Shown here piece by piece: positions 18,383-32,696 of a DNA stretch of 64,000 bases (positions within the stretch are counted from its first letter, which is position 1; each line of letters begins with the position of its first letter). This stretch comes from Caulobacteraceae bacterium PMMR1 (lineage in GTDB: Bacteria; Pseudomonadota; Alphaproteobacteria; Caulobacterales; Caulobacteraceae): contig JPOM01000001.1 of NCBI GenBank assembly GCA_000733915.1, positions 1,054,001 to 1,118,000 on the forward strand, written 5' to 3'. The notes beneath the pieces are model-generated. The model worked only from the letters and a program-made list of their open reading frames with translations. It ran no database searches and was not told where the DNA came from. Made by a program: the position numbers and the translations under genes.

Positions 18383-19309
18383 ATGACCCGCCTTGCCCGT
18401 GTGCCGAGCTTCGCCGAGACGGCGGAGCAGGCGCTGAGCGACCCCTTGACCCTCCACCGGCGCCTGGCGCGCTGGAACCGCCGCCGCCTCGCCGTCCAGA
18501 TTCCCTCTGCAGACTGGGAGCGGGACTTGCGCGAGGAGCATGAGATGCGCCGCCTGGAGGGGCGCTACATCGAGGCGTTCCGCGCCGAGGTCGCTGACCG
18601 GGCCGCCGCCGCCCCGGCCGACGAAGATGGGTTCATCGCCTGGTTCGAGGAGCTGAAAGCCAGCGGCCCCGGCCAGGGCGACCCGCTGTTCCCCTGGCTC
18701 GCGCAGGAGGCGACGCTGGAGGATCTCCGCTGGTTCCTGACCCAGGAGGCGGCCGGGGAGGCCGGATTCGACGACCTCGTCGCCATGGCTCAGGTCAAGA
18801 TGCCCACGACCGCCAAGCTCGAGCTCGCCCGCAACTACTGGGACGAGATGGGCCGGGGCGCTGAGGGCGGCATGCACGGGCCGATGCTGGAGCGCACCGC
18901 CCGCGGCCTGCACCTCAGCCCCACCATCGAGGGCACGGCCTGGCAGAGCCTGGCGCTGGCCAACACCATGACGGCCTTCTCAACCACCCGCCGCTACGCC
19001 TATCACGCGGTGGGCGCGCTGGGCGTCGTGGAGCTGACTGCGCCCGGCCGCGTCGCCCAGGTGTCGGCGGGGCTGAAGCGCTGCGGCGTGGAGCCGAAGC
19101 TGCGCAAGTACTTCGAGCTACACGCCGTGCTTGACGTGAAACATTCCGAGGACTGGAATCGGGAGGTGCTGCGGCCCCTCGTGCGCGACCACCCTGAGAG
19201 CGTGCGCCCCCTGGCCGAGGGGGCTCTGATGCGGCTGACCTGCGGGGCGCGCTGCTTTGAGGCCTACCGCGCCCACCTGTGGGCCGGCCCCGCCCGCGCC
19301 CGGGCGTAA
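18383..19309 (+). CDS. Iron-containing redox enzyme, haem-oxygenase-like fold
   Basis: A 308-residue alpha-helical protein of the haem-oxygenase-like diiron oxidase/oxygenase superfamily. Likely iron ligands lie in ELARNYWDEMGRG (E147, D154) and in YFELHAVLDVKHSEDW (E245, H247, D251, H254). Other family blocks are WFLTQEAAGEAGFDDLVAMAQ and a final helix with ARCFEAYR. The ATG at 18383 begins the conserved part; a longer open frame reaches back into queD and is rejected. It follows queD by 109 bases on the same strand. Related proteins include UndA- and SznF-type N- or C-oxygenases. The substrate is unknown. Confidence 0.8.
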   Translation: MTRLARVPSFAETAEQALSDPLTLHRRLARWNRRRLAVQIPSADWERDLREEHEMRRLEGRYIEAFRAEVADRAAAAPADEDGFIAWFEELKASGPGQGDPLFPWLAQEATLEDLRWFLTQEAAGEAGFDDLVAMAQVKMPTTAKLELARNYWDEMGRGAEGGMHGPMLERTARGLHLSPTIEGTAWQSLALANTMTAFSTTRRYAYHAVGALGVVELTAPGRVAQVSAGLKRCGVEPKLRKYFELHAVLDVKHSEDWNREVLRPLVRDHPESVRPLAEGALMRLTCGARCFEAYRAHLWAGPARARA

Positions 19310-19326
19310 GCGGGGCCGGCCCGGGG

Positions 19327-19488
19327 CTATTTGCGGGCGTCGTTGGCGGTGCTGGTCACCGCATGGCCCGCGGCGCTGACGTCGCGACCGATGCCGGCGA
19401 CGGTGTTGCAGGCGGCGAGCGTCAAAGCGGCCAGGGCCAGGGCCCCGGACGCCAGGGCGGCGGAGGGCAGGAGGATGGGCTTGCGCAT
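19327..19488 (-). CDS. Entericidin-like small lipoprotein
   Basis: A 53-residue lipoprotein: positively charged MRK, a hydrophobic stretch, lipobox LTLAAC with Cys 27, then NTVAGIGRDVSAAGHAVTSTA, which closely matches the entericidin A/B (EcnAB) family. GGAGA lies about 7 bases before the ATG. Entericidins are small membrane lipoproteins linked to envelope stress and programmed lysis in enterics; in alphaproteobacteria their role is unclear. It is convergent with the diiron gene, with 17 bases between stops. Confidence 0.87.
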   Translation of the reverse strand: MRKPILLPSAALASGALALAALTLAACNTVAGIGRDVSAAGHAVTSTANDARK

Positions 19489-19549
19489 AGGCAGATCTCC
19501 GGGATGAAGAGCTAAGCTGAGCCGCCGGGGAGATAGACGCAGCCCGCCT

Positions 19550-19594
19550 CGCCTTCAACGCCCCCGCCTTCAACGCCCCAGCTTTCAACGCCTC
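19550..19594. repeat. 15-bp tandem repeat
   Basis: Three copies of a unit close to cgccttcaacgcccc, the last diverged. It lies in the gap between the entericidin gene and the IS256 element where no credible gene is seen. Confidence 0.6.
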
Positions 19595-19656
19595 CGCTGT
19601 TCGATGGCGAGCCTCGGCGTCGCCCTTCGTCCGCGCCTCCCGCGGGCAGAGGCCAT

Positions 19657-20852
19657 GGTCGTGTCCCCAGACGTGGTGTAGCTGGGCGGTAGCGAAGCCG
19701 CTCGCGTAGCGCGCCCCCACAAGGCGCCGTAGCGAGCGAGCGGTGTCGCGCGGTGGTCATCTGCGATCATCGGTTAGGGTCGGATTTGCCTGACTCAACT
19801 CTGACCAAGGACCGAAGATGACCGAGGACATGATCGCCCTTGGCGGGCTGATGGAGAAGAGCGCCGACGCCGATTTGCTGCGCGAGATGATCGGCTTCGC
19901 CGCCCAGCGGCGGATGGAGCTGGAGGCGGGCCAGCTCACCGGCGCGGGGCATGGGGAGAAGAGCGCCGAGCGGCTGGTGCAGCGCAACGGCTATCGTGAG
20001 CGCGACGGGGAGACCCGCGCCGGGACCGTCGAGCTGCGCATCCCGAAGCTTCGGAAGGGCAGCTACTTCCCGTTCTTTCTCGAGCCACGGCGGCTGGCGG
20101 AGAAGGCGCTGACCGCAGTGATCCAGGAGGCCTGCGTCCAAGGCGTCTCCACCCGCTCGGTGGACGACCTGGTCCGGGCGATGGGCGGAGACCTTCTGGA
20201 CGGAGTTCCTGCGCAAGCTGGCCCGCCGCGGCCTGCGCGGCGTGAAGCTGGTCGTCTCCGACGCTCACGCGGGGCTGAAGGCGGTGGCCGCGCGGGTGCT
20301 GAGCGCCACTCACCAGCGCTGCCGCGTGCACTTCGCCCGCAACGCCCTGGCCCACGCTGGCAAGAACGGTCGGCGCGTGGTCTCGGCGCGGATGGCCGCC
20401 GCCTTCGCCCAGGATGACGCCGAGGCCGCAAAGGCCCAGTGGCGCAGGGTCTCCGACCAGCTGCGCCCCAAGCTGCCCAAGCTCGCCGAGCTGATGGACC
20501 GGGCCGAGGACGACGTGCTGGCCTACATGAGCTTCCCGGCCGCCCATCGGGTGAAGATCCACTCGGTGAACCCGATCGAGCCAGTGAACCGGGAGATCAA
20601 GCGGCGAACCGAGGTCGTCGGCATCTTCCCAAACGAGGCCGCGCTCGCCCGCCGCGTCGGCGCCATCCTGCTCGAGCAATCCGACGAATGGGCCGTCCAG
20701 CGCTCCCGCTACATGCCGCTGGAAAGCTTCGCACCGCTCAGCGATGATGCCCTCGTCCGCCTGCCCGCCATGGCCGCCTGACCAGACCCGGCCCAGCCGG
20801 AGATCGCGGGGATCACACCGCCGAAGCTACACCACGGCTCGGGACACGATCC
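19657..20852 (+). mobile_element. IS256-family insertion sequence, internally deleted
   Basis: Imperfect terminal inverted repeats bound the element: 19657-19690 on the left and 20817-20852 on the right. Both share the core TCGTGTCCC, CGTGGTGTAGCT and GCGGT. Between them is one broken Mutator-type transposase. The length is about 1.2 kb, with roughly 240 bases of transposase missing compared with the family. No matching target duplication is seen at the two ends, suggesting a deletion beside the element or recombination between copies. The right end abuts the csb1 pseudogene. Confidence 0.8.
19818..20781 (+). pseudogene. IS256-family (Mutator) transposase, deleted and frameshifted
   Basis: The N-terminal part reads [24 protein letters not shown] through [22 protein letters not shown], then jumps near 20188 to the frame of [18 protein letters not shown] and continues to LPAMAA. 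The missing piece, about 80 residues, is where the family keeps the first catalytic Asp (DATYVKVR region). The second Asp region [12 protein letters not shown] and the Glu motif NPIEPVNREIKRRTEVVGIFP remain. The element is therefore unable to move on its own but could be mobilised in trans through its intact ends. Confidence 0.87.
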
Positions 20853-22050
20853 CAGCTTGTCCTGCGGCGTCAGCCGCACCGGCTCATCCTGGAGGGCGAG
20901 GCCGGCAGCCTTCGCTCGGTCGTAGGCTTCGCGTTACAGGGCGCGCACCGCCTCCCGGCTCAGATCGACCTCCGGCGCGGAACCGTCGGCCTGGACACGC
21001 TGCAGCGGCGCACGGCCCTCGCATACCAGGTCGCAGCGGGAGCGCAGCGCATAGCCGTGCGCATCCTGCTCGGCGATTGCTAGAAGTCCCAGGGCCGCGA
21101 GATAGGCGCGGCCCGCCTTGTCCCTCTCTCCGCCGCCGAACCCTAGCCGCCGCAGCCCCGCGAAACTGATCACCGCAGTATGCTCGGCGTAGTCGCATGT
21201 GATCCCGAGCGGATCGACTTGTGGCGGAACATTGCCGTGATTGATCTTCGCGGGCGATCCTGGGGCGCCAGACCACTTCTTACGCCCGGAATAGAGGATT
21301 GGCTCGCCCCCTTTGCCCTTCGCTGCCTGCTCCGGAAGGCAGTCTAGCCGTTCGCATCGTCCTTGGCTTGATAGATGCGGACCTTCTTCAAAGTCCCGAG
21401 AGGATCGATGCGGCTGCCGGTCCGCCGCCCAGCCGTACGCACCTCGATTTCGCCGGTGCGGTTGTCGATCGCTTCCACGCTGACGCCCACGGCCGCGATT
21501 TCCGACACGAGCGCACGCGGGAACTTGGCGCCGAGGCCGCCGCCTTCGCCTGTTGAGTTCCAGGCTCCGAAGAGGAGCGCGGTGGGCGAGACCTCCAGGA
21601 GCGCGGAGGCGTCGGCCGGCTTGGCCTGAGCCAGCCGCCGACCCAGTTCGCTCTTCGGGAACGGCTGGCCGTCCAAGTCGCTGTCGCGCAGGATTGCGTC
21701 TTAGACGCGGTGGGGCGCGTCCAGAGAGGTGATCTCGGTCAGCCCTGCCAGCTGAGCCCGGCGGAAGTCGACCATGACGTGCGGCACCACCACGGCACCG
21801 TCGCGAATCGCGCCGAGTAGGGCCTCCTCCAGCCGGTTGGCTTGGCTTTGGACACTGTCAACCAGGGCGCACCAAACGTCTTCGCCATTGACCCGACGCC
21901 GCTCGAGTACGTGCCGTGGGCCGTTCCGGCCCTCGCCCGGGTAAGTCGGTGGGAAGATCTTGTCTCTTGACCGCCGACCGGCTGCAGGCGCTGGCGACGG
22001 CGGAGCGCGGCGTCTTGCGCGACCGCGCGGCTGAGTTCGTGGTAGTCCAT
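20852..22050 (-). pseudogene. csb1: CRISPR-associated Csb1 / Cas7 (type I-G, formerly I-U) pseudogene
   Basis: Remnant of the backbone RAMP protein of a type I-G Cascade. Read across frames from the ATG at 22050 it gives RLQPVGGQ, GDKIFPPTYPGEG, LVDSVQSQANRLEEALL, SLDAPHRV, DAILRDSDLDGQPF, PTALLFGAWNSTGEGGGLG, KFPRALVSEI, GSRIDPLG, INHGNVPPQVDPLGITCDYA, AGLRRLGFGGG and RSRCDLV, the conserved order of the GSU0053/Csb1 family. Lesions: a one-base loss after codon 28 (near 21966), an in-frame TAA at 21701-21703 where an aromatic residue is expected, TAG at 21344-21346 where Trp is expected, a frame change just beyond it, and TAA at 20934-20936. After the last stop the frame continues (REAYDRAKAAGLALQDEPVRLTPQDKL) until cut by the IS256 right end. 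No other intact cas gene or array is seen nearby. Confidence 0.85.
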
Positions 22051-22511
22051 CAGCCCCCCTTCGCCTCAGTAAGCCTTTCCAGTCCGGCGCTACCTTGGCG
22101 TGAGATGGGAAGGGCTGGCTTCCTGCGCGCCAGGTGGCGTTCTGTCGCAAGCTCCCGCGGCAGCTTTAGAGCGATGCCCCGCACGCCGACCCCGAAGCGT
22201 CTGGACCTGTTGCGATGACTGCATCGCCGCCCGGCAGCCCGTGGCCTGCGCTCTCGCGGGTGATGGGGCGCGACCACAGGCGGGTGCAAGAGAATGTTGA
22301 CGCGCCTGCTCACGGGTGCAGAACTTCCCGCGCCGGCTCATTCGGGTCGGCGTTGCGGGTCGCTGGCGAAGGTTGAGGAGCGCGGGCTCCTAAGCGGCGG
22401 AGGCCGCCGGAGCGGGCTGGCGCCCGGCCATAGCCGCGAGGTATTCGCATCTCGGGGGTGAGGACCTCCATCATCTGGCGACCCTCGATCCACAGCTCGA
22501 CCACGCCGAAC
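22051..22511. other. Degenerate interval between csb1 and the tetR remnant
   Basis: No convincing gene is seen in these 461 bases. On the minus strand a frame ending LERLTEAKGG stops in a TGATG overlap with the csb1 start. That looks like the tail of a coupled upstream gene, possibly another cas gene, but the upstream reading is broken and not recognisable. The sequence near 22330-22500 carries unrelated fragments. Confidence 0.4.
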
Positions 22512-22788
22512 ATGCCGGGCGAGGGCGAGGCGGTGCTGAACCACGTCACCCTGGCGGAGCGCGCGGGCGTGGCGCGGCGGACGGTCTACCGCTACTTCCC
22601 GGACCGGCCGGCGCTGATGGACGCCGCCCTGCAGCGCGTGCGTGAGCTGGCCGGGCCGCAGGTCGCCTATCCGGAAAGCGCCGAGGAGCTGCTGGCGACG
22701 CTGGAGCCGATCTACACGGGCTTCGACGCCATCGCGCCGATCAACGTCATGCTTCGCGCCACGCCGCAGGGCCGGGCCCTCAGGCTAG

Positions 22789-23630
22789 GCTCAAGACTCA
22801 TTCACAGCCAGAAGGACAGTAGCGCTGCAAGGGCGACGGCGGAGAGGAAGTTGGCCGCGAGCTTGTCGTAGCGGGTGGCGACGCGGCGGAAGTCCTTGAG
22901 CCTGCAGAAGGCGTTCTCGATCCGGTGGCGCTCTCGGTAGCGGTCTTGATCGTAGGCGATGCGGCGTTTGCGGGTGCTTCGGCCTGGGATGACCGGCACG
23001 GCTCCGGACTGCCGCAGCATCCGGCGGAGCGCGTCGGCGTCGTATCCCTTGTCGGCCAGCACGTAGCGGGCGCCTTGGGCGCGGGCGAGCAGGGCCGGCG
23101 CGACAGTAATGTCGGAGACGTTGCCCGGGGTCAGCGTCAGCGCGAAGGGGCGCCCGACGGTGTCGGTGAGGACATGAACTTTGGTGGTCTGACCGCCGCG
23201 CGAGGGGCCGATCGCCTGCGCCCGCGCCCCCCTTTTCCGCCGAAGGCCGAGCGCTGCGCCTTGACGTAAGTGCTGTCCACCGCGGTGCTTTTCGTCACCG
23301 CGCCGGAGGCGGCGAGCGCTTCCAGCAGCTGGATCCAGAACCGTCGGCGAGACCATCGGTTGAACCGGTTGTAGACCGTCGTGTGCGGGCCGTAGTCGCC
23401 GGGGCAGTCCTGCCAGCGGCAACCCACCTTCAGCACGTGGAGGATGCCCGAGATCACCCGCCGGTCGTCCACCCGCCTGGCGCCGGGCTGGTTCTGCGGC
23501 AGGTGCGGCTCGATCGCCGCCCACTGCTCGTCCGACAACCAGAACAGGCCCATGCCCCCCTCCAACGCCGCTCAGGGCGCCGGAATCATGATTTGCCCAC
23601 CGGCCTCAAGCGCGTGATTGGGTTTGGAGC
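22789..23630 (-). mobile_element. IS5-family (IS427-like) insertion sequence
   Basis: An 842-bp element. Its ends read GCTCAAGACTCATTCAC on the left and, reverse complemented, GCTCCAAACCCAATCAC on the right, so imperfect inverted repeats of about 17 bases. It is flanked by CTAG at 22785-22788 and 23631-23634, a clean 4-bp target duplication. It contains a two-frame transposase and sits inside a tetR gene. The exact duplication and coherent transposase suggest a recent insertion. Confidence 0.88.
22802..23553 (-). CDS. IS5-family transposase, two frames joined by probable -1 frameshifting
   Basis: The first frame from the ATG at 23553 reads MGLFWLSDEQWAAIEPHLP, then VISGILHVLKVGCRWQDCPGDYGPHTTVYNRF and the first catalytic Asp region STAVDSTYVKAQRS. 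The second frame carries SRGGQTTKVHVLTDTVGRP, VLADKGYDADALRR (second Asp) and RYRERHRIENAFCRLKDFRRVATRYDK (Glu motif). The switch lies at an A4-G6 run near 23228-23240 (GGAAAAGGGGGG on the coding strand), a classic -1 slippery site used by this IS group. All DDE residues are present, so it is probably active. About 250 residues when joined. Confidence 0.85.
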
Positions 23631-23993
23631 CTAGCTCAAAAACAGAAGCGGGTGGCGAGCTACACCAAGGCGCTGGCCGAGGCGGTGAAGGAACTTCCCA
23701 AGGAGGACCGCAAGCTGGCCACCGCCATGCTGCAGGTGCTGCACACCACCCCTTGGCTCGAAATGCGCGACCAGTGGGACCTGGACGGCCGCCAGATCGC
23801 CCGCGCCGCCGCCTGGGCGGTGCGCACGCTGCTGAAGGACCTCAAGACGCGACGCGGCCTGCCGCTCGACCAAGAGGTCGAGACATAAGGCGATGAGCGC
23901 GGGTTGAGTTCTTGAGTCGCCAAGCCCAAGCCCCAGGGGCCTCCACGCAGGGTCAAGCCCGTTTCACACCGGTCTGAGCTTAGATCGGATGGA

Positions 23994-24083
23994 TGGCGGT
24001 GAGAGAGGGATTCGAACCCTCGATACGGTTTCCCGTATACACGCGTTCCAGGCGTGCGCCTTCAACCACTCGGCCACCTCACC
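23994..24083 (-). tRNA. tRNA-Ser (anticodon GGA)
   Basis: A class II tRNA on the minus strand: acceptor GGTGAGG pairing with TCTCACC, D-arm GGCCGAGTGGTTGAAGGC, anticodon loop CTGGAAC, long variable arm TATACGGGAAACCGTATC, and T-arm GGTTCGAATCC. Encoded CCA end. 90 bases. Confidence 0.94.
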
Positions 24084-24317
24084 CCGACCGCGGCGCGCGC
24101 TGGCGCGGCCTGCCGGAAGGCGCGGGACTATACTCAGGCGCGGCCCCGGGGCAAGCGGCTGTCTGGGATCAGCACATGTGAGACAGGGGCATTGAGAGGG
24201 GCCCGTCCCATTCACGCCATGAGCCGGCTCCAGTTGGCCTTGGCCATCTCTGGCGCCACCTCCGCCGCGCGCGGCGAAAGGGGCGCCTCCTGTGCGCGCC
24301 CGGGCGAATCCAGACTT

Positions 24318-24353
24318 GAGCGAGACGGCCCAAGACGGAGGTCGACTAGCGGG
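24318..24353. repeat. Left copy of an imperfect direct repeat flanking the low-GC segment
   Basis: A 36-base stretch matching 25651-25686 at 28 of 36 positions, with an uninterrupted 13-base core GAGACGGCCCAAG. The two copies bracket a low-GC segment of about 1.3 kb, and the right copy runs into the 3' end of tRNA-Ser(TGA). This is a layout expected of attachment-site-like repeats, but the match is imperfect. Confidence 0.45.
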
Positions 24354-24355
24354 CC

Positions 24356-24619
24356 ATGCCCGAAGATGATGAGCAGGCTGGCCATCCAGAGACCCCAGCG
24401 GCCGCTGTCAGTCTTGATATATTCTCAGCAAAGATTAGTGTCCAGATCGTGGGGTTGGGGGCGAACGAAAAAATTTTCAAGACGACGGCTGAACTGGCGG
24501 GGCGAAAACGCTTCATCCCAGCTTCTTCCGATTCGGCTGAGGGCCACATTCCGCCAAAAGTCGGTCGACTGTCCCGTCCTAGCGACCCCCTGATCCTGTC
24601 AGGTGCGCTCTACACATAA
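24356..24619 (+). CDS. Hypothetical protein in low-GC segment
   Basis: An open frame of 87 residues (MPEDDEQAGHPETPAAAVS to LILSGALYT) with no recognised domain. The base composition is visibly lower in GC than the neighbourhood. It precedes the UDG-like gene by 9 bases on the same strand. No strong ribosome site is seen, so coding status is uncertain. Confidence 0.35.
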   Translation: MPEDDEQAGHPETPAAAVSLDIFSAKISVQIVGLGANEKIFKTTAELAGRKRFIPASSDSAEGHIPPKVGRLSRPSDPLILSGALYT

Positions 24620-24628
24620 GGAGAACTG

Positions 24629-25250
24629 ATGTTTCAGCCGTGGTTTTGTCCGGAACTTTGGGGTGCGCAGGAAAATGCCTTGCGCGGTGTTCGCCTCCTA
24701 GTCCTGGGTGAGTCGCACCACCACGAGGATCCGAGTCTCACCGGGAAGGCTCACCCTGGAATGACCGTGGACGTGATCGAAAAGTACGCAATCCGCGAAT
24801 GCTCGCGGTTCTTCGGCGGTGTAATGCAAGCGGTGGCCGGCCGACGGTGGGCGGACTCTTGCGAACAGGAACGACGGGCTTTCTGGCAGTCGGTCCTCTT
24901 CTATAACTACGTCCCTGTTTTATTCGGCACAACCTCTCGAATTCGTCCGAAACAATGGATGTGGGGAGGGCGCTGCTGTGCCGTTCGCACGAGTGCTCGA
25001 AGAGCACAAGCCCGAGGCCGTCCTGGTCTGTGGTTATGACCTTTGGGGGTGGGTCGTGCACGGGATGTCGGGCATGAAGGACACTCCGTGGGAGGAAAAG
25101 TCCTACTCGGAACTGAGCAAGCCCGTCGTGTTCCAGAAGATGGCTGGAGCGACGGCGATGCGAATGCAGCACCCATCGTCCACCGGGTACTCCGCCGATC
25201 ACTGGCGGAAGCCCGTCGCTGATGTTCTGAACTCTGCCAAAACTGTCTAA
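24629..25250 (+). pseudogene. Uracil-DNA-glycosylase-superfamily-like gene, frameshifted
   Basis: It begins at an ATG with AAGGAG 7 bases upstream. The first frame reads MFQPWFCPELWGAQENALRGVRLLVLGESHHHEDPS through FWQSVLFYNYVPVLFG to RPKQWMWG. The second frame continues as AVPFARVLEEHKPEAVLVCGYDLWGWV to MRMQHPSSTGYSADHW and ADVLNSAKTV. One extra G in the GGGG run at 24963-24966 explains the switch; removing it gives about 206 continuous residues. GESHH near the start and a late HPSS motif resemble motifs A and B of the uracil-DNA glycosylase fold, but this is pattern-level similarity only. It lies in a low-GC acquired segment. A sequencing error in the G run is possible. Confidence 0.6.
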
Positions 25251-25292
25251 ACCGCGCTCCACAACGGGGCGCACTGCCCCCTTGGAGCAATC

Positions 25293-25712
25293 ATGAAAAT
25301 TGTTGCCTATCTTCGAGGGTCGCTTGCCGACCCGCAGCTTTCCTCCAGGAGCCTATCCGCCCAGCGTCGTGCGATAGAGTCTTCGTCCGACCAGGGCGAC
25401 GAAATTATCGCCGAGTTCATCGACTTCGTTGAGCATGCGGAGCGACCGAATCTAGAGAGAGCGGTTGTGCTCTGTCAGGAGGCGGAAGCCGCACTCTACA
25501 TGGCCGAAGCCGCGGGGCTTCTAGGCGTTTTGGCGTGGACGAGCACAAGCTGGACTTCGGCTCAGAAGGCGGATGGTTTCGCATATGTCGAAGCGAGGCA
25601 GTTCCGGCCCGGCGTTTATGGCGCGACGCGCACCGCGGGGGGCGAGGCTCGGGTGAGACGGCCCAAGAGGGAGGCCGGCTGGCGGATGGGGTGGGATTCG
25701 AACCCACGGTAG
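25293..25712 (+). CDS. Serine-recombinase N-terminal-like protein, running into tRNA-Ser
   Basis: The first 80 residues (MKIVAYLRGS, LSAQRRAIES, GDEIIAEFIDFVEHAERPNLERAVVLC) follow the pattern of a resolvase N-terminal domain, including Tyr-x-Arg-x-Ser at residues 6-10. The later catalytic DRLxR segment is replaced by LYMAEAAGLLG. After about residue 90 the frame is unlike any recombinase and ends inside the antisense of tRNA-Ser as MGWDSNPR, a known artefact of reading through tRNA genes. It is most likely a truncated recombinase-like remnant. It starts 43 bases after the UDG-like gene and shares its low GC. Confidence 0.5.
   Translation: MKIVAYLRGSLADPQLSSRSLSAQRRAIESSSDQGDEIIAEFIDFVEHAERPNLERAVVLCQEAEAALYMAEAAGLLGVLAWTSTSWTSAQKADGFAYVEARQFRPGVYGATRTAGGEARVRRPKREAGWRMGWDSNPR
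25651..25686. repeat. Right copy of imperfect direct repeat, touching tRNA-Ser(TGA)
   Basis: Partner of the repeat at 24318-24353. It overlaps the encoded CCA and the last acceptor bases of tRNA-Ser(TGA), the usual position of an integrase attachment site. No integrase gene other than the resolvase-like fragment is present between the copies. Confidence 0.45.
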
Positions 25713-25769
25713 GCTCGCACCTACGGCGGTTTTCAAGACCGCTGCCTTAAACCACTCGGCCACCCATCC
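25680..25769 (-). tRNA. tRNA-Ser (anticodon TGA)
   Basis: A class II tRNA on the minus strand: acceptor GGATGGG pairing with CCCATCC, anticodon loop CTTGAAA, long variable arm GTAGGTGCGAGCCTAC, and T-arm GGTTCGAATCC. Encoded CCA. 90 bases. Together with the tRNA-Ser(GGA) 1.6 kb away it brackets the low-GC segment. Confidence 0.94.
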
Positions 25770-30633: not shown

Positions 30634-30730
30634 GCCTGCGGCTCAAGGCGCTTGCCTGATCGTCTGAAGCCGTATTCTGTGCGCCGCCGCCGTGCGGCGC
30701 ACGTCCTCTTCTCATCGGAGTCCTCCAGCC

Positions 30731-31731
30731 ATGCGTCGCCTGATCCTTGCCGCCGCCTCCCTGCTCGCCCTCGCCGGCGCCGCTGACGCCAAGGCGCCCG
30801 CCTATGCCGTGACCGGCAAGCTCGCCCTGCCGGACGGGGGCTGGGACCTCGCGAGCTTCGATCCCGCGATGCGGCGGGTCTATATCGCCCGCAGCGACGC
30901 GATCACGGCCATCGACGTCGACACCGGCCAGGTCACCGGTAAGCTGGCGCGCGCGTACGGCGGTCACGCGGCGGTGGCGATCAACGGCGGCCGCGAGGTC
31001 ATGGTCACCAGCGGCAGGTCCAACACCGCCGACGTGTTCGACGCCAAGACCGGGGCGGCGATCGCCTCCATCAAGGTGGGCGAAAAGCCCGACGCCGCCA
31101 TGCTCGACGCCGCGACTGGCCTTGCCGTGGTCATGAACGCCGAGAGCGGCGATCTCAGCCTCATCGACCCCGCTGCGCACGCGGTGGTGGCGACGATCCC
31201 CGTGGGCGGCTCGCTCGAGCTCGGCGCCTCGGACGGGACAGGCCGCATCTTCGTCAACGTCGAGGACAAGAACGAGGTCGTCGCCGTGGACCTGAAGGCG
31301 CGCAAGGTTCTGCGCCACTACGCGCTGGCGGGCTGCGACGGCCCGACGGGCGTGGCGTGGCTGGCGGTGTCGCGCCGGGTCCTCTCCGCCTGCGCCAACG
31401 GCGTCGCCGCGATCACCGACCCGGAGACGAGCAAGGTGCAGACCCTGCCGATCGGCCAGGGCCCGGACACGGCCCTCTATGACGCCGGGCGCAAGCTCGC
31501 CTTCGTGCCGACGCGCAGCGGCGAGCTCGACATCTTCGCCGACGACGCCGCAGGCGTGACCCATGTGGGCAAGGTCGCCACTCAGCGCGGCGCCCGCACC
31601 GGCGCGCTCGACCCCAAGACCGGGCGCCTCTACTTGCCCGCCGCCGACTACGCCGCCCCCGCCGCCCCGGCGGCCGGCCGCAAGCGGTCCCAGGCTCGGT
31701 GGTCGCGGTGGTGGTCAGTCCGGCCGGCTGA
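30731..31731 (+). CDS. Secreted YncE-like beta-propeller protein with 3' frameshift
   Basis: Signal peptide [20 protein letters not shown], then a seven-bladed propeller of about 40-residue repeats (VYIARSDAITAIDVDTGQVTGKL, VMVTSGRSNTADVFDAKTGAAIASI, AVVMNAESGDLSLIDPAAHAVVATI). The open frame itself runs to 32005, antisense to galU, with arginine-rich nonsense from about residue 318. Shifting one base near 31685 gives AVPGSVVAVVVSPAG and a stop at 31729-31731, a natural ending. The gene therefore appears to have lost one base near its 3' end. Most of the propeller is intact, so some function may remain. It may act with the preceding receptor. Confidence 0.75.
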
Positions 31732-31763
31732 CCTCGACGCCGGAGAAGCGCCACGTCGGGGCG

Positions 31764-31795
31764 GGACAGGGCAGGCCAGGGTCGGACAGGGCAGG
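31764..31795. repeat. Short direct repeat downstream of the propeller gene
   Basis: Two copies of ggacagggcagg with a 20-base period (31764-31775 and 31784-31795) lie in the gap between the propeller gene and galU. Confidence 0.5.
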
Positions 31796-31828
31796 GCGGG
31801 CGGCGCTCGGCGCCGGCTCAGCCCGCCC
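31794..31828. terminator. GC-rich hairpin between convergent propeller gene and galU
   Basis: The 8-base arms GGGCGGGC and GCCCGCCC enclose a smaller GGCGC/GCGCC stem. The structure overlaps the last codons of galU and has no U-run, so it is only a possible terminator. Confidence 0.35.
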
Positions 31829-32696
31829 GCGCCATCTCCTCCGCCACCATGGAGCGCACGGCGGCCTGCAGGTCGGGGCGCTTCAGCGACAGGGCGAGGT
31901 TGGCGCGCAACCAGCCGAGGCGGTCGCCGCAGTCATAGCTGCGCCCCTCGTAGTCGTAGGCGTGGAAGTCCTGCTGCTGCATCAGCCGCGCCATGGCGTC
32001 GGTGAGCTGGATCTCGTTGCCCGCCCCGCGCTCCTGCGCGCTCAGGATGGGGAAGATCTCTGGCTGCAGGATGTATCGGCCGAGCACCGACAGGTTGGAA
32101 GGCGCGCTGCCCTGGGGCGGCTTCTCCACCATGCCCGACATCTGGATCAGGCGGCCGTTCCGGCTCTTCGGCGTCACGATGCCGTACTTGTGGGTCTCGC
32201 TCTCGGGCACCTGCTCGACGACGACGATGTTGCCGCCGACGTGCTCATAGGCCTTCACGGCCTGGGCCAGGCACGAGGGCTCCGCGTCCACGATCACGTC
32301 GGGCAACAGCACGGCGAAGGGCTCCTCGCCCACGACGTCGCGCGCGCACCAGACGGCGTGGCCCAGGCCATGCGGCGCCATCTGGCGGACGTAGGAGACC
32401 TCGCCCTCCTTCGGCAGGGCGCTCACGATCTGTTCGAGAAGCTCCGTCTTTCCCTTCTCCTTCAGGGTCAGCTCGAGCTCGATCTGGTGGTCGAAATAGT
32501 CCTCCATGGCCGTCTTGCCTCGGCCGGTGACGAGGATGAAGTGCTCGATCCCCGCGGCGCGCGCCTCCTCCAGCACCCAGGCGATGAGCGGGCGGTCCAC
32601 GACCGGCAGCATCTCCTTGGCCACCGTCTTGGCGGCGGGCAGCATGCGGGTGCCGAGCCCCGCAACGGGGAACACGGCCTTGCGGATCGGCTTCAT
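31818..32696 (-). CDS. galU: UTP-glucose-1-phosphate uridylyltransferase
   Basis: Makes UDP-glucose from UTP and glucose-1-phosphate for polysaccharide and glycan synthesis. The nucleotidyltransferase signature is KAVFPVAGLGTRMLPAAKTVAKEMLPVVDRPLI, with catalytic Lys in EML-proximal loops, then HFILVTGRGK, PEGEVSYVRQ-like segments, AVLLPDVIVD and EIQLTDAMARL near the C-terminus. 292 residues, typical. It is followed upstream on the same strand by glmS, 122 bases away. The two supply activated sugars for the envelope, together with glmM and glmU in this window. Confidence 0.95.
   Translation of the reverse strand: MKPIRKAVFPVAGLGTRMLPAAKTVAKEMLPVVDRPLIAWVLEEARAAGIEHFILVTGRGKTAMEDYFDHQIELELTLKEKGKTELLEQIVSALPKEGEVSYVRQMAPHGLGHAVWCARDVVGEEPFAVLLPDVIVDAEPSCLAQAVKAYEHVGGNIVVVEQVPESETHKYGIVTPKSRNGRLIQMSGMVEKPPQGSAPSNLSVLGRYILQPEIFPILSAQERGAGNEIQLTDAMARLMQQQDFHAYDYEGRSYDCGDRLGWLRANLALSLKRPDLQAAVRSMVAEEMARAG

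What the first reader, a model, noticed from the sequence alone, without database searches (positions are those of the whole stretch)
24629..25250. Frameshifted uracil-glycosylase-fold-like gene in a low-GC segment
One extra G in GGGG (24963-24966) separates two frames that join into about 206 residues with GESHH near the N-terminus and a late HPSS motif, placed like motifs A and B of the UDG superfamily. It does not look like a housekeeping UDG; the type-5 enzyme is elsewhere in the window. Its composition and location point to acquisition, so it may belong to a defence or mobile cassette.
Basis: partly seen in the sequence, partly recalled or inferred. Interest (0 to 1): 0.5.

Follow-up and report, generated by a model that had tools for sequence, protein, structure and literature searches.

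The report
Broken DNA-glycosylase-like gene in decayed island
This is the frame-broken remnant of a gene for a probable DNA-base-removing enzyme, from an unnamed family of the uracil-DNA-glycosylase group whose intact relatives are scattered across bacteria, often on mobile DNA, and might act against viruses.

Summary
Two overlapping + strand frames (about 24629-24967 and 24972-25250) match adjacent halves of one protein family (profile positions 4-109 and 111-184, E 1.2e-29 and 1.7e-11). Of 95 loci outside this genome, duplicates included, 91 carry it in one frame. The uracil-glycosylase reading is supported: the AlphaFold2 model of an intact Microvirga relative (pLDDT 94.4) has UDG-superfamily entries in 49 of 50 rows shown (best 4zby, Z 11.6), and the three motif starts are conserved (G-E-S-H, N, H-P). 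It lacks family 4's motif-1 proline and shows no conserved cysteine set. No library model reached its cut-off. The copy lies in a low-GC segment bracketed by a 41-nt direct repeat that ends in a tRNA-Ser gene, near transposase remnants and a cas7g pseudogene: an acquired, decaying stretch. Best reading: a probably dead copy of a mobile DNA glycosylase, about as likely aimed at foreign, modified DNA as at anything else. Defence is inferred: plasmid, prophage and restriction neighbours favour it; five alphaproteobacterial relatives examined had almost no defence neighbours. The interest lies in the family.

The parts
24629..24967 (+). First piece of the broken gene: motif 1 (GESHH) and the FYN asparagine
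   Evidence: Profile positions 4-109, E 1.2e-29; tblastn 40.8% identity over residues 1-116 to Microvirga WP_203446902.1, E 3e-16
24972..25250 (+). Second piece, in the next frame: P-x-x-V-L-V-C-G strand and motif 2 (HPSS)
   Evidence: Profile positions 111-184, E 1.7e-11; tblastn 32.9% identity to the same Microvirga protein, E 0.04, and 27.0% to an Aureimonas plasmid protein, E 0.003
24312..24352 (.). Left copy of a 41-nt direct repeat, at the left edge of the low-GC segment
   Evidence: 33 of 41 identical to 25645-25685; the best of 200 block shuffles reached 27; the 20-nt core occurs without mismatch only at these two places in the genome
25645..25685 (.). Right copy of the direct repeat; its last 6 nt are the 3' end of tRNA-Ser(TGA)
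25680..25769 (-). tRNA-Ser (anticodon TGA), possible integration target
   Evidence: ARAGORN
23994..24083 (-). tRNA-Ser (anticodon GGA), on the other side of the segment
   Evidence: ARAGORN
24356..24619 (+). ORF of 87 aa directly upstream; no relatives found, may not be a gene
   Evidence: No Pfam match at E<=10, no plasmid match at E<=1, no match in the other loci held
25293..25712 (+). ORF whose first 68 residues resemble, weakly, a serine-recombinase N-terminal domain; its end runs into the tRNA gene
   Evidence: PF00239 E 0.046, below cut-off, for 25293-25640; no Pfam match for the longer stretch; one weak relative in 198 genomes, own included in the two that match
21479..21988 (-). cas7g/Csb1 (type I-G, formerly I-U) pseudogene with one in-frame stop
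   Evidence: PF09617 E 3.3e-47 with one TAA inside; PADLOC Cas7g on both halves
19818..20781 (+). Mutator-type transposase in two frames, profile positions 130-226 missing
   Evidence: PF00872 matches 16-129 and 227-377 of 379
22805..23565 (-). DDE transposase, two frames; the second frame was seen by coding score only
   Evidence: PF01609 E 7.7e-20 for 22805-23524; coding-score segments. Two frames can be normal in such elements (recalled)

Best explanation
Shown by computation: 24629-25250 is a frame-broken gene of an unnamed, sporadic family with the uracil-DNA-glycosylase (UDG) fold, in a short acquired segment within a decaying stretch. Inferred from fold and motifs: the intact enzymes bind DNA, flip a base into the UDG pocket, hold a pyrimidine with the invariant motif-3 Asn, and cut the N-glycosidic bond with the motif-2 His and the G-E motif-1 loop, leaving an abasic site. 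Inferred with less certainty: the target is a non-standard base of invading DNA, so that the enzyme works as a Brig-like barrier for hosts or mobile elements. The window copy is probably dead, because motif 1 and the Asn lie in one frame and motif 2 in the other. Estimates: UDG fold 0.95; intact relatives are active glycosylases 0.8; defence against foreign DNA rather than repair 0.5; window copy non-functional 0.75.
For: Fold: model pLDDT 94.4, pTM 0.92; 49 of the 50 VIA-align rows shown are UDG-superfamily entries, best 4zby Z 11.6 over 155 residues at 3.5 A, the same structure that was the best match of Brig1 in its paper (PMC11078745, passages); 47 of 50 Foldseek rows likewise. Sequence: best PDB sequence for the A4 profile is the S. 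tokodaii UDG, E 0.0055; Pfam UDG E 0.0085 for the E. coli copy. Motifs: of 64 rows with a letter, G 64, E 62 (D 2), S 64, H 63; Asn 64; H 63, P 62. Gene structure. Acquisition and decay. Mobility: 65 of 67 E. coli places on plasmids, 5 viral contigs, 3 Resolvase and 3 phage-integrase matches among 121 neighbour ORFs. Defence neighbours: type III methylase and restriction subunit, DpdE/ZorD-type, OloA and GajB-type proteins in 3 of 10 large neighbours scanned. Repair is already served: three other PF03167 genes in the genome.
Against: No activity is shown. No Foldseek PDB row reached E 0.001, and the Pfam UDG match is below its cut-off. Motif 1 lacks the Pro of GEGP/GEQP. Five alphaproteobacterial relatives gave 2 PADLOC matches among 34 neighbour ORFs, 7 of 10 large neighbours gave none, and no matched control was run. 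The E. coli plasmid copies are nearly identical, so they count as one event. A sequencing error at the G run is not excluded: a gene outside the segment also slips frame near 31650.
Confidence: 0.5

Rival explanations
1. The family is an accessory repair glycosylase (uracil or other deaminated or damaged bases) carried by mobile elements for their own DNA, not an anti-phage enzyme.
For: The motif set G-E, N, HP is that of uracil-specific family 4 and UDGX (PMC5387724 and PMC10776899, passages); UDGX too is a sporadic, non-defence UDG by its abstract. Five alphaproteobacterial relatives have almost no defence neighbours.
Against: The host already has three PF03167 genes; the family is rare (3 of 398 genomes of the phylum, own included); several relatives lie by restriction or defence genes.
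Confidence: 0.33
2. The fold is UDG-like but the protein no longer removes bases from DNA: it binds DNA or acts on another substrate.
For: Motif 1 is G-E-S-H-Y/H where family 4 and UDGX have G-E-G-P or G-E-Q-P; identity to the model protein is about 20-43% in most rows.
Against: The positions used for base binding and leaving-group stabilisation in family 4 (PMC5387724, passages) are almost invariant here.
Confidence: 0.12
3. The frame break in the window is a sequencing or assembly error at a G run and the gene is intact.
For: The change falls in a stretch with G runs; each piece keeps the conserved residues, as a recent or false break would; a YncE-like gene (name recalled) near 31650, outside the segment, also slips frame.
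Against: The stretch to the left shows decay of other kinds: a cas7g gene with an in-frame stop and a transposase with an internal loss.
Confidence: 0.25
4. Both frames are used, by programmed frameshifting or as two separate proteins.
For: The G run could let ribosomes slip (inference); no other evidence.
Against: 91 of 95 other loci hold one frame over at least 80% of the model, duplicates included; of the other four one is cut by IS26 and three are partly covered.
Confidence: 0.03

Closest known systems
Family 4 uracil-DNA glycosylase (UDGa; 4zby, 1ui0) and UdgX
   Same: Fold (Z 11.6, 11.3 and 10.7); G-E at motif 1, Asn at motif 3, H-P at motif 2 (with PMC10776899, passages).
   Different: Motif 1 reads GESH(Y/H) instead of GEGP or GEQP; no conserved cysteine set in A4, whereas 4zby holds an Fe-S cluster (PMC11078745 legend); no Pfam match above cut-off.
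Brig1 (alpha-glucosyl-5hmC DNA glycosylase; PMC11078745, passages)
   Same: UDG superfamily, best structural match the same 4ZBY, sporadic, found in defence islands.
   Different: Named pocket residues Y121, N145 and E147, with N145A harmless in vivo, against the invariant Asn here; 261 aa; mostly in Actinobacteria. Brig1 itself could not be aligned here.
Brig3 with BapA (5hmC DNA glycosylase; PMC13160076, abstract, passages and two sections)
   Same: UDG superfamily by that paper; proposed base flipping and abasic sites.
   Different: Motif 1 named as N50-P51-S52 with E55, plus W100, H125, D127, N225 and a Mg ion, against G-E-S-H here; operon with a glucosyl hydrolase, for which the neighbours here were not searched. 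No direct alignment.
Human TDG / E. coli MUG
   Same: Fold (TDG Z 10.8; MUG among the Foldseek rows).
   Different: About 8-9% identity to TDG; motif 1 of TDG and MUG is G-I-N-P (recalled).
Base-excision restriction enzymes (R.PabI type; PMC10273834, abstract start in a listing)
   Same: The idea of restricting DNA by base excision.
   Different: A different fold (recalled), and excision at a recognition sequence unless it is methylated.

Membership tests
UDG superfamily | UDG alpha/beta fold | tested here: met
   Intact Microvirga relative, not the window copy: pLDDT 94.4; 49 of 50 VIA-align rows and 47 of 50 Foldseek rows are UDG-superfamily entries
UDG superfamily | Motif 1 G-[EQ..]-x-P | tested here: inconclusive
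   G 64 and E 62 of 64 rows, but Ser-His follows where Pro is usual
UDG superfamily | Base-binding Asn at the start of motif 3 | tested here: met
   FYN Asn in 64 of 64 rows; that it is the equivalent of N80/N82 rests on position, not on superposed residues
UDG superfamily | Motif 2 His-Pro | tested here: met
   H 63 and P 62 of 64 rows; aligned with the HP of 4zbx
UDG superfamily | Base excision activity | not testable with these tools
   Needs an enzyme assay
Family 4 UDGa | Four Fe-S cysteines | tested here: not met
   Only two columns have Cys in over 20% of rows, 17 and 13 rows
Family 4 UDGa | GEGP/GEAP motif 1 | tested here: not met
   GES(H) in the 64 rows with a letter, apart from 2 D and 1 E
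UdgX | KRRIH loop with the cross-linking His | tested here: inconclusive
   No loop search was made; no conserved His was seen 18 residues after the Asn (one column)
Brig1 | Sequence relation to Brig1 and its pocket residues | not tested
   The Brig1 sequence could not be fetched; only named residues were compared
Brig3 | N-P-S..E motif 1, H125/D127 | tested here: inconclusive
   The family has G-E-S-H and F-Y-N at what appear to be these places; no direct alignment
Known anti-phage families (PADLOC 2023) | A model that recognises the protein | tested here: not met
   0 families at E<=1 for six sequences, the two window pieces among them

The most novel reading that the evidence does not exclude
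The GESH family is a third lineage of anti-invader DNA glycosylases beside Brig1 and Brig3, spread over many phyla by plasmids, prophages and integrative elements, and present on common enterobacterial plasmids, where an intact copy could be tested at once in laboratory strains.
Probability: 0.4. Interest if true: 0.7.

Novelty: new variant of a known kind. Interest (0 to 1): 0.42.

Why it matters
DNA glycosylases as anti-phage enzymes are a young class (Brig1 2024, Brig3 2026 preprint). A well-defined, widely scattered and unnamed UDG-fold family with its own motif 1 would widen it, and intact copies are at hand for assay. The window copy itself matters little: it is a remnant that leads to the family.

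Tried and rejected
Searches with the first piece or with one relative alone found nothing in genome contigs, phages or viral contigs; an alignment query was needed. PHROGs, NCBIfam and PADLOC gave 0 families at E<=1 for six sequences. PDB sequence searches with single relatives gave no UDG. Pfam gave the first piece only a chance-level DUF6511 match, E 0.2. The VIA-align list names no Brig protein; that excludes nothing.

Empty site: tRNA-Ser(TGA) was found in relatives, but in the nine loci scanned no second tRNA gene lay in the 3 kb held, so synteny differs and no empty site was shown. The repeat overlaps the tRNA by only 6 nt, less than is usual for integration into tRNA genes (recalled). 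The att-site reading is probable, not shown. The shuffles swapped blocks of two bases within the two intervals and do not strictly keep dinucleotide counts.

Partners: the 87-aa upstream ORF has no relatives. The resolvase-like ORF has one weak relative among 198 genomes and none beside the other loci held.

CRISPR array beside the cas7g pseudogene: no regular array in 19300-24100.

Defence neighbours are only described, as no matched control was run. The 121 neighbour ORFs of A5 were picked by me from 276 listed out of 37 loci; 236 redundant PADLOC models matched them, and the tool does not say how many of the 121. The 34 ORFs come from five loci that I had left out of A5. ORFs were called greedily by length, which is noisy at high GC. 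The ten large proteins were picked from 16 kb loci as likely candidates: 3 matched at E<=1e-10, 7 did not.

Literature: four accessions of relatives occur in no paper of the library; searches found no paper on the family. That library lacks most subscription papers.

Full report
1. What is there. The + strand holds two overlapping frames, 24629-25039 and 24978-25250. A five-row profile of relatives finds the two pieces end to end (profile 4-109 and 111-184; E 1.2e-29 and 1.7e-11). Both pieces align with the same single-frame protein of Microvirga pMVF16-3: 40.8% identity, E 3e-16, for the first and 32.9%, E 0.04, for the second. Of 95 loci outside the window's genome, 91 hold one ORF that covers at least 80% of the model; the other four are a copy cut by IS26 (L003) and three partly covered ones (L058, L064, L078). 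Duplicates were not removed from the 95 (for example L007/L017, L002/L088, L004/L005, L059/L097). The window gene is thus one gene with a frame break at about 24961-24972. No other copy was found in the genome.

2. What the protein is. With alignment A4 (65 rows) AlphaFold2 gives the intact Microvirga relative pLDDT 94.4 and pTM 0.92. Foldseek's best PDB rows are UdgX and TDG, with E-values from 2.2e-3 and none at 0.001 or below; 47 of the 50 rows shown are UDG-superfamily entries. VIA-align 2 gives Z 11.6 to the family-4 UDG 4zby (155 residues, 3.5 A, 10% identity), 11.3 to 1ui0, 10.8 to TDG and 10.7 to UdgX; 49 of 50 rows shown are UDG-superfamily entries, the other a phage DNA polymerase, 9qhs. 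The best viral model is a UDG as well (E 4.5e-4). Sequence agrees weakly: the A4 profile's best PDB sequence is the S. tokodaii UDG (E 0.0055), and Pfam UDG matches the E. coli plasmid copy at E 0.0085, below the curated cut-off, and the Microvirga copy not at all.

3. Active site. In the motif columns 64 of the 65 rows have a letter: motif 1 is G 64, E 62 (D 2), S 64, H 63, then Y 53 or H 11; the FYN Asn is 64 of 64; motif 2 is H 63, P 62, S 53. Family 4 and UDGX start their motifs with GEGP or GEQP, N and HP (PMC10776899, passages); in family 4 the Asn binds the base and the motif-2 His stabilises the leaving group (PMC5387724, passages). The family keeps E, N and HP but not the motif-1 Pro, and has no conserved cysteine set. 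The window carries GESHH and FYN in one frame and HPSS in the other, so neither piece alone should be an enzyme (inference).

4. Where the family occurs. A genome-contig scan confirmed 123 of 159 pattern matches as relatives, of which the best 80 were kept; viral contigs gave 5 of 40; the plasmid collection had 105 records with a match to the first piece at E<=1. Whole-genome searches show it is rare: 2 of 198 relatives and 3 of 398 of the phylum, the own genome counted in both, and 1 of 385 of the class, the own genome. In E. coli it is in 65 of 5426 genomes, 65 of 67 places on plasmids, all at 99% identity or more, so one recent cargo. A quick tree puts the window pieces among alphaproteobacterial rows (SH-aLRT 88, nothing starred below it for the window) and needs 9 label changes for Pseudomonadota and 5 for Bacteroidota (shuffled means 19.3 and 13.5): clustered by phylum, but not one clade each. 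That fits some transfer and does not prove it; 28 of 61 inner branches are open.

5. Neighbourhoods. For a defence or mobile context: a type III methylase and restriction subunit directly downstream on IncN plasmids, with an Mrr-type nuclease beyond an IS26 (L004); DpdE/ZorD-type (L095), OloA (L057) and GajB/RT-associated helicase type (L029) among ten large neighbours, the other seven blank; 3 Resolvase and 3 phage-integrase matches among 121 neighbour ORFs. Against: L013-L016 and L021, alphaproteobacterial relatives of the window copy, gave 2 PADLOC matches among 34 ORFs. No matched control was run, so no enrichment is claimed.

6. The window's surroundings. GC is 0.55-0.62 in the 200-base windows starting at 24300-25400, against 0.64-0.77 on either side. 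A 41-nt direct repeat (33 of 41 identical; 200 block shuffles reached at most 27) brackets the segment, its right copy ending in the 3' end of tRNA-Ser(TGA); its 20-nt core occurs without mismatch only at these two places in the genome. To the left lie a Mutator-type transposase lacking profile positions 130-226, a DDE transposase and a cas7g gene with one in-frame stop. A stop and an internal loss are not the usual errors of a sequencer, so this stretch is truly decaying. Outside it, a YncE-like gene (name recalled) slips frame near 31650, so an error at the G run is not excluded.

7. Mechanism and function. [quoted passage not shown] the target base is unknown. The genome has three other genes that match Pfam UDG, which argues against a basic repair need. 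Mobility and some neighbours suggest a Brig-like barrier to modified foreign DNA. The residues named for Brig1 and Brig3 differ, so this would be another lineage; but neither sequence was at hand for alignment.

8. Verdict. Observation confirmed; UDG reading supported; defence role plausible and unproven. The window copy is most likely dead, and the interest lies in the unnamed family.

Noticed in passing
window 21479-21988 (-): cas7g/Csb1 (type I-G CRISPR) pseudogene with one in-frame TAA; a second match without stops lies at G000:C1:2645620-2646204.
   Followed up: partly
window 19818-20781 (+): Mutator-type transposase remnants in two frames with profile positions 130-226 missing; inverted repeats of 25 nt at 19659-19683 and 20825-20849 (92%) may be its ends.
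   Followed up: partly
window about 31650: A YncE-like gene (30692-32005; name recalled) seems to slip frame near its C-terminus; the expected ending reads in another frame.
   Followed up: partly
L122 1255-1647 (-) and 2076-2795 (+): The only other match in 198 genomes to the window's resolvase-like ORF lies about 430 bases from a different UDG-like gene (PF03167 E 0.011, motif LNPAGHE, which fits the N-P-x-x-x-E spacing named for Brig3). One weak case; the UDG-like gene has relatives in 4 of 249 genomes of the family, itself included, none beside such an ORF in the loci held.
   Followed up: partly
L002 12512-13099 (-): A DUF1643 protein lies about 4 kb from the Microvirga copy, in a stretch with DNA methyltransferase genes.
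   Followed up: no
L009 5542-6879 (+): In Methylobacterium bullatum the family domain stands behind an N-terminal extension of about 150 residues (445 aa ORF in all), with a resolvase gene 0.8 kb away.
   Followed up: no
L003 5971-6468 (+): On an E. coli IncF plasmid the gene is cut by an IS26; described only.
   Followed up: no
9qhs chain A residues 35-205: A phage family-A DNA polymerase aligns to the model at Z 9.9 with its N-terminal part, which suggests a UDG-like domain there.
   Followed up: no
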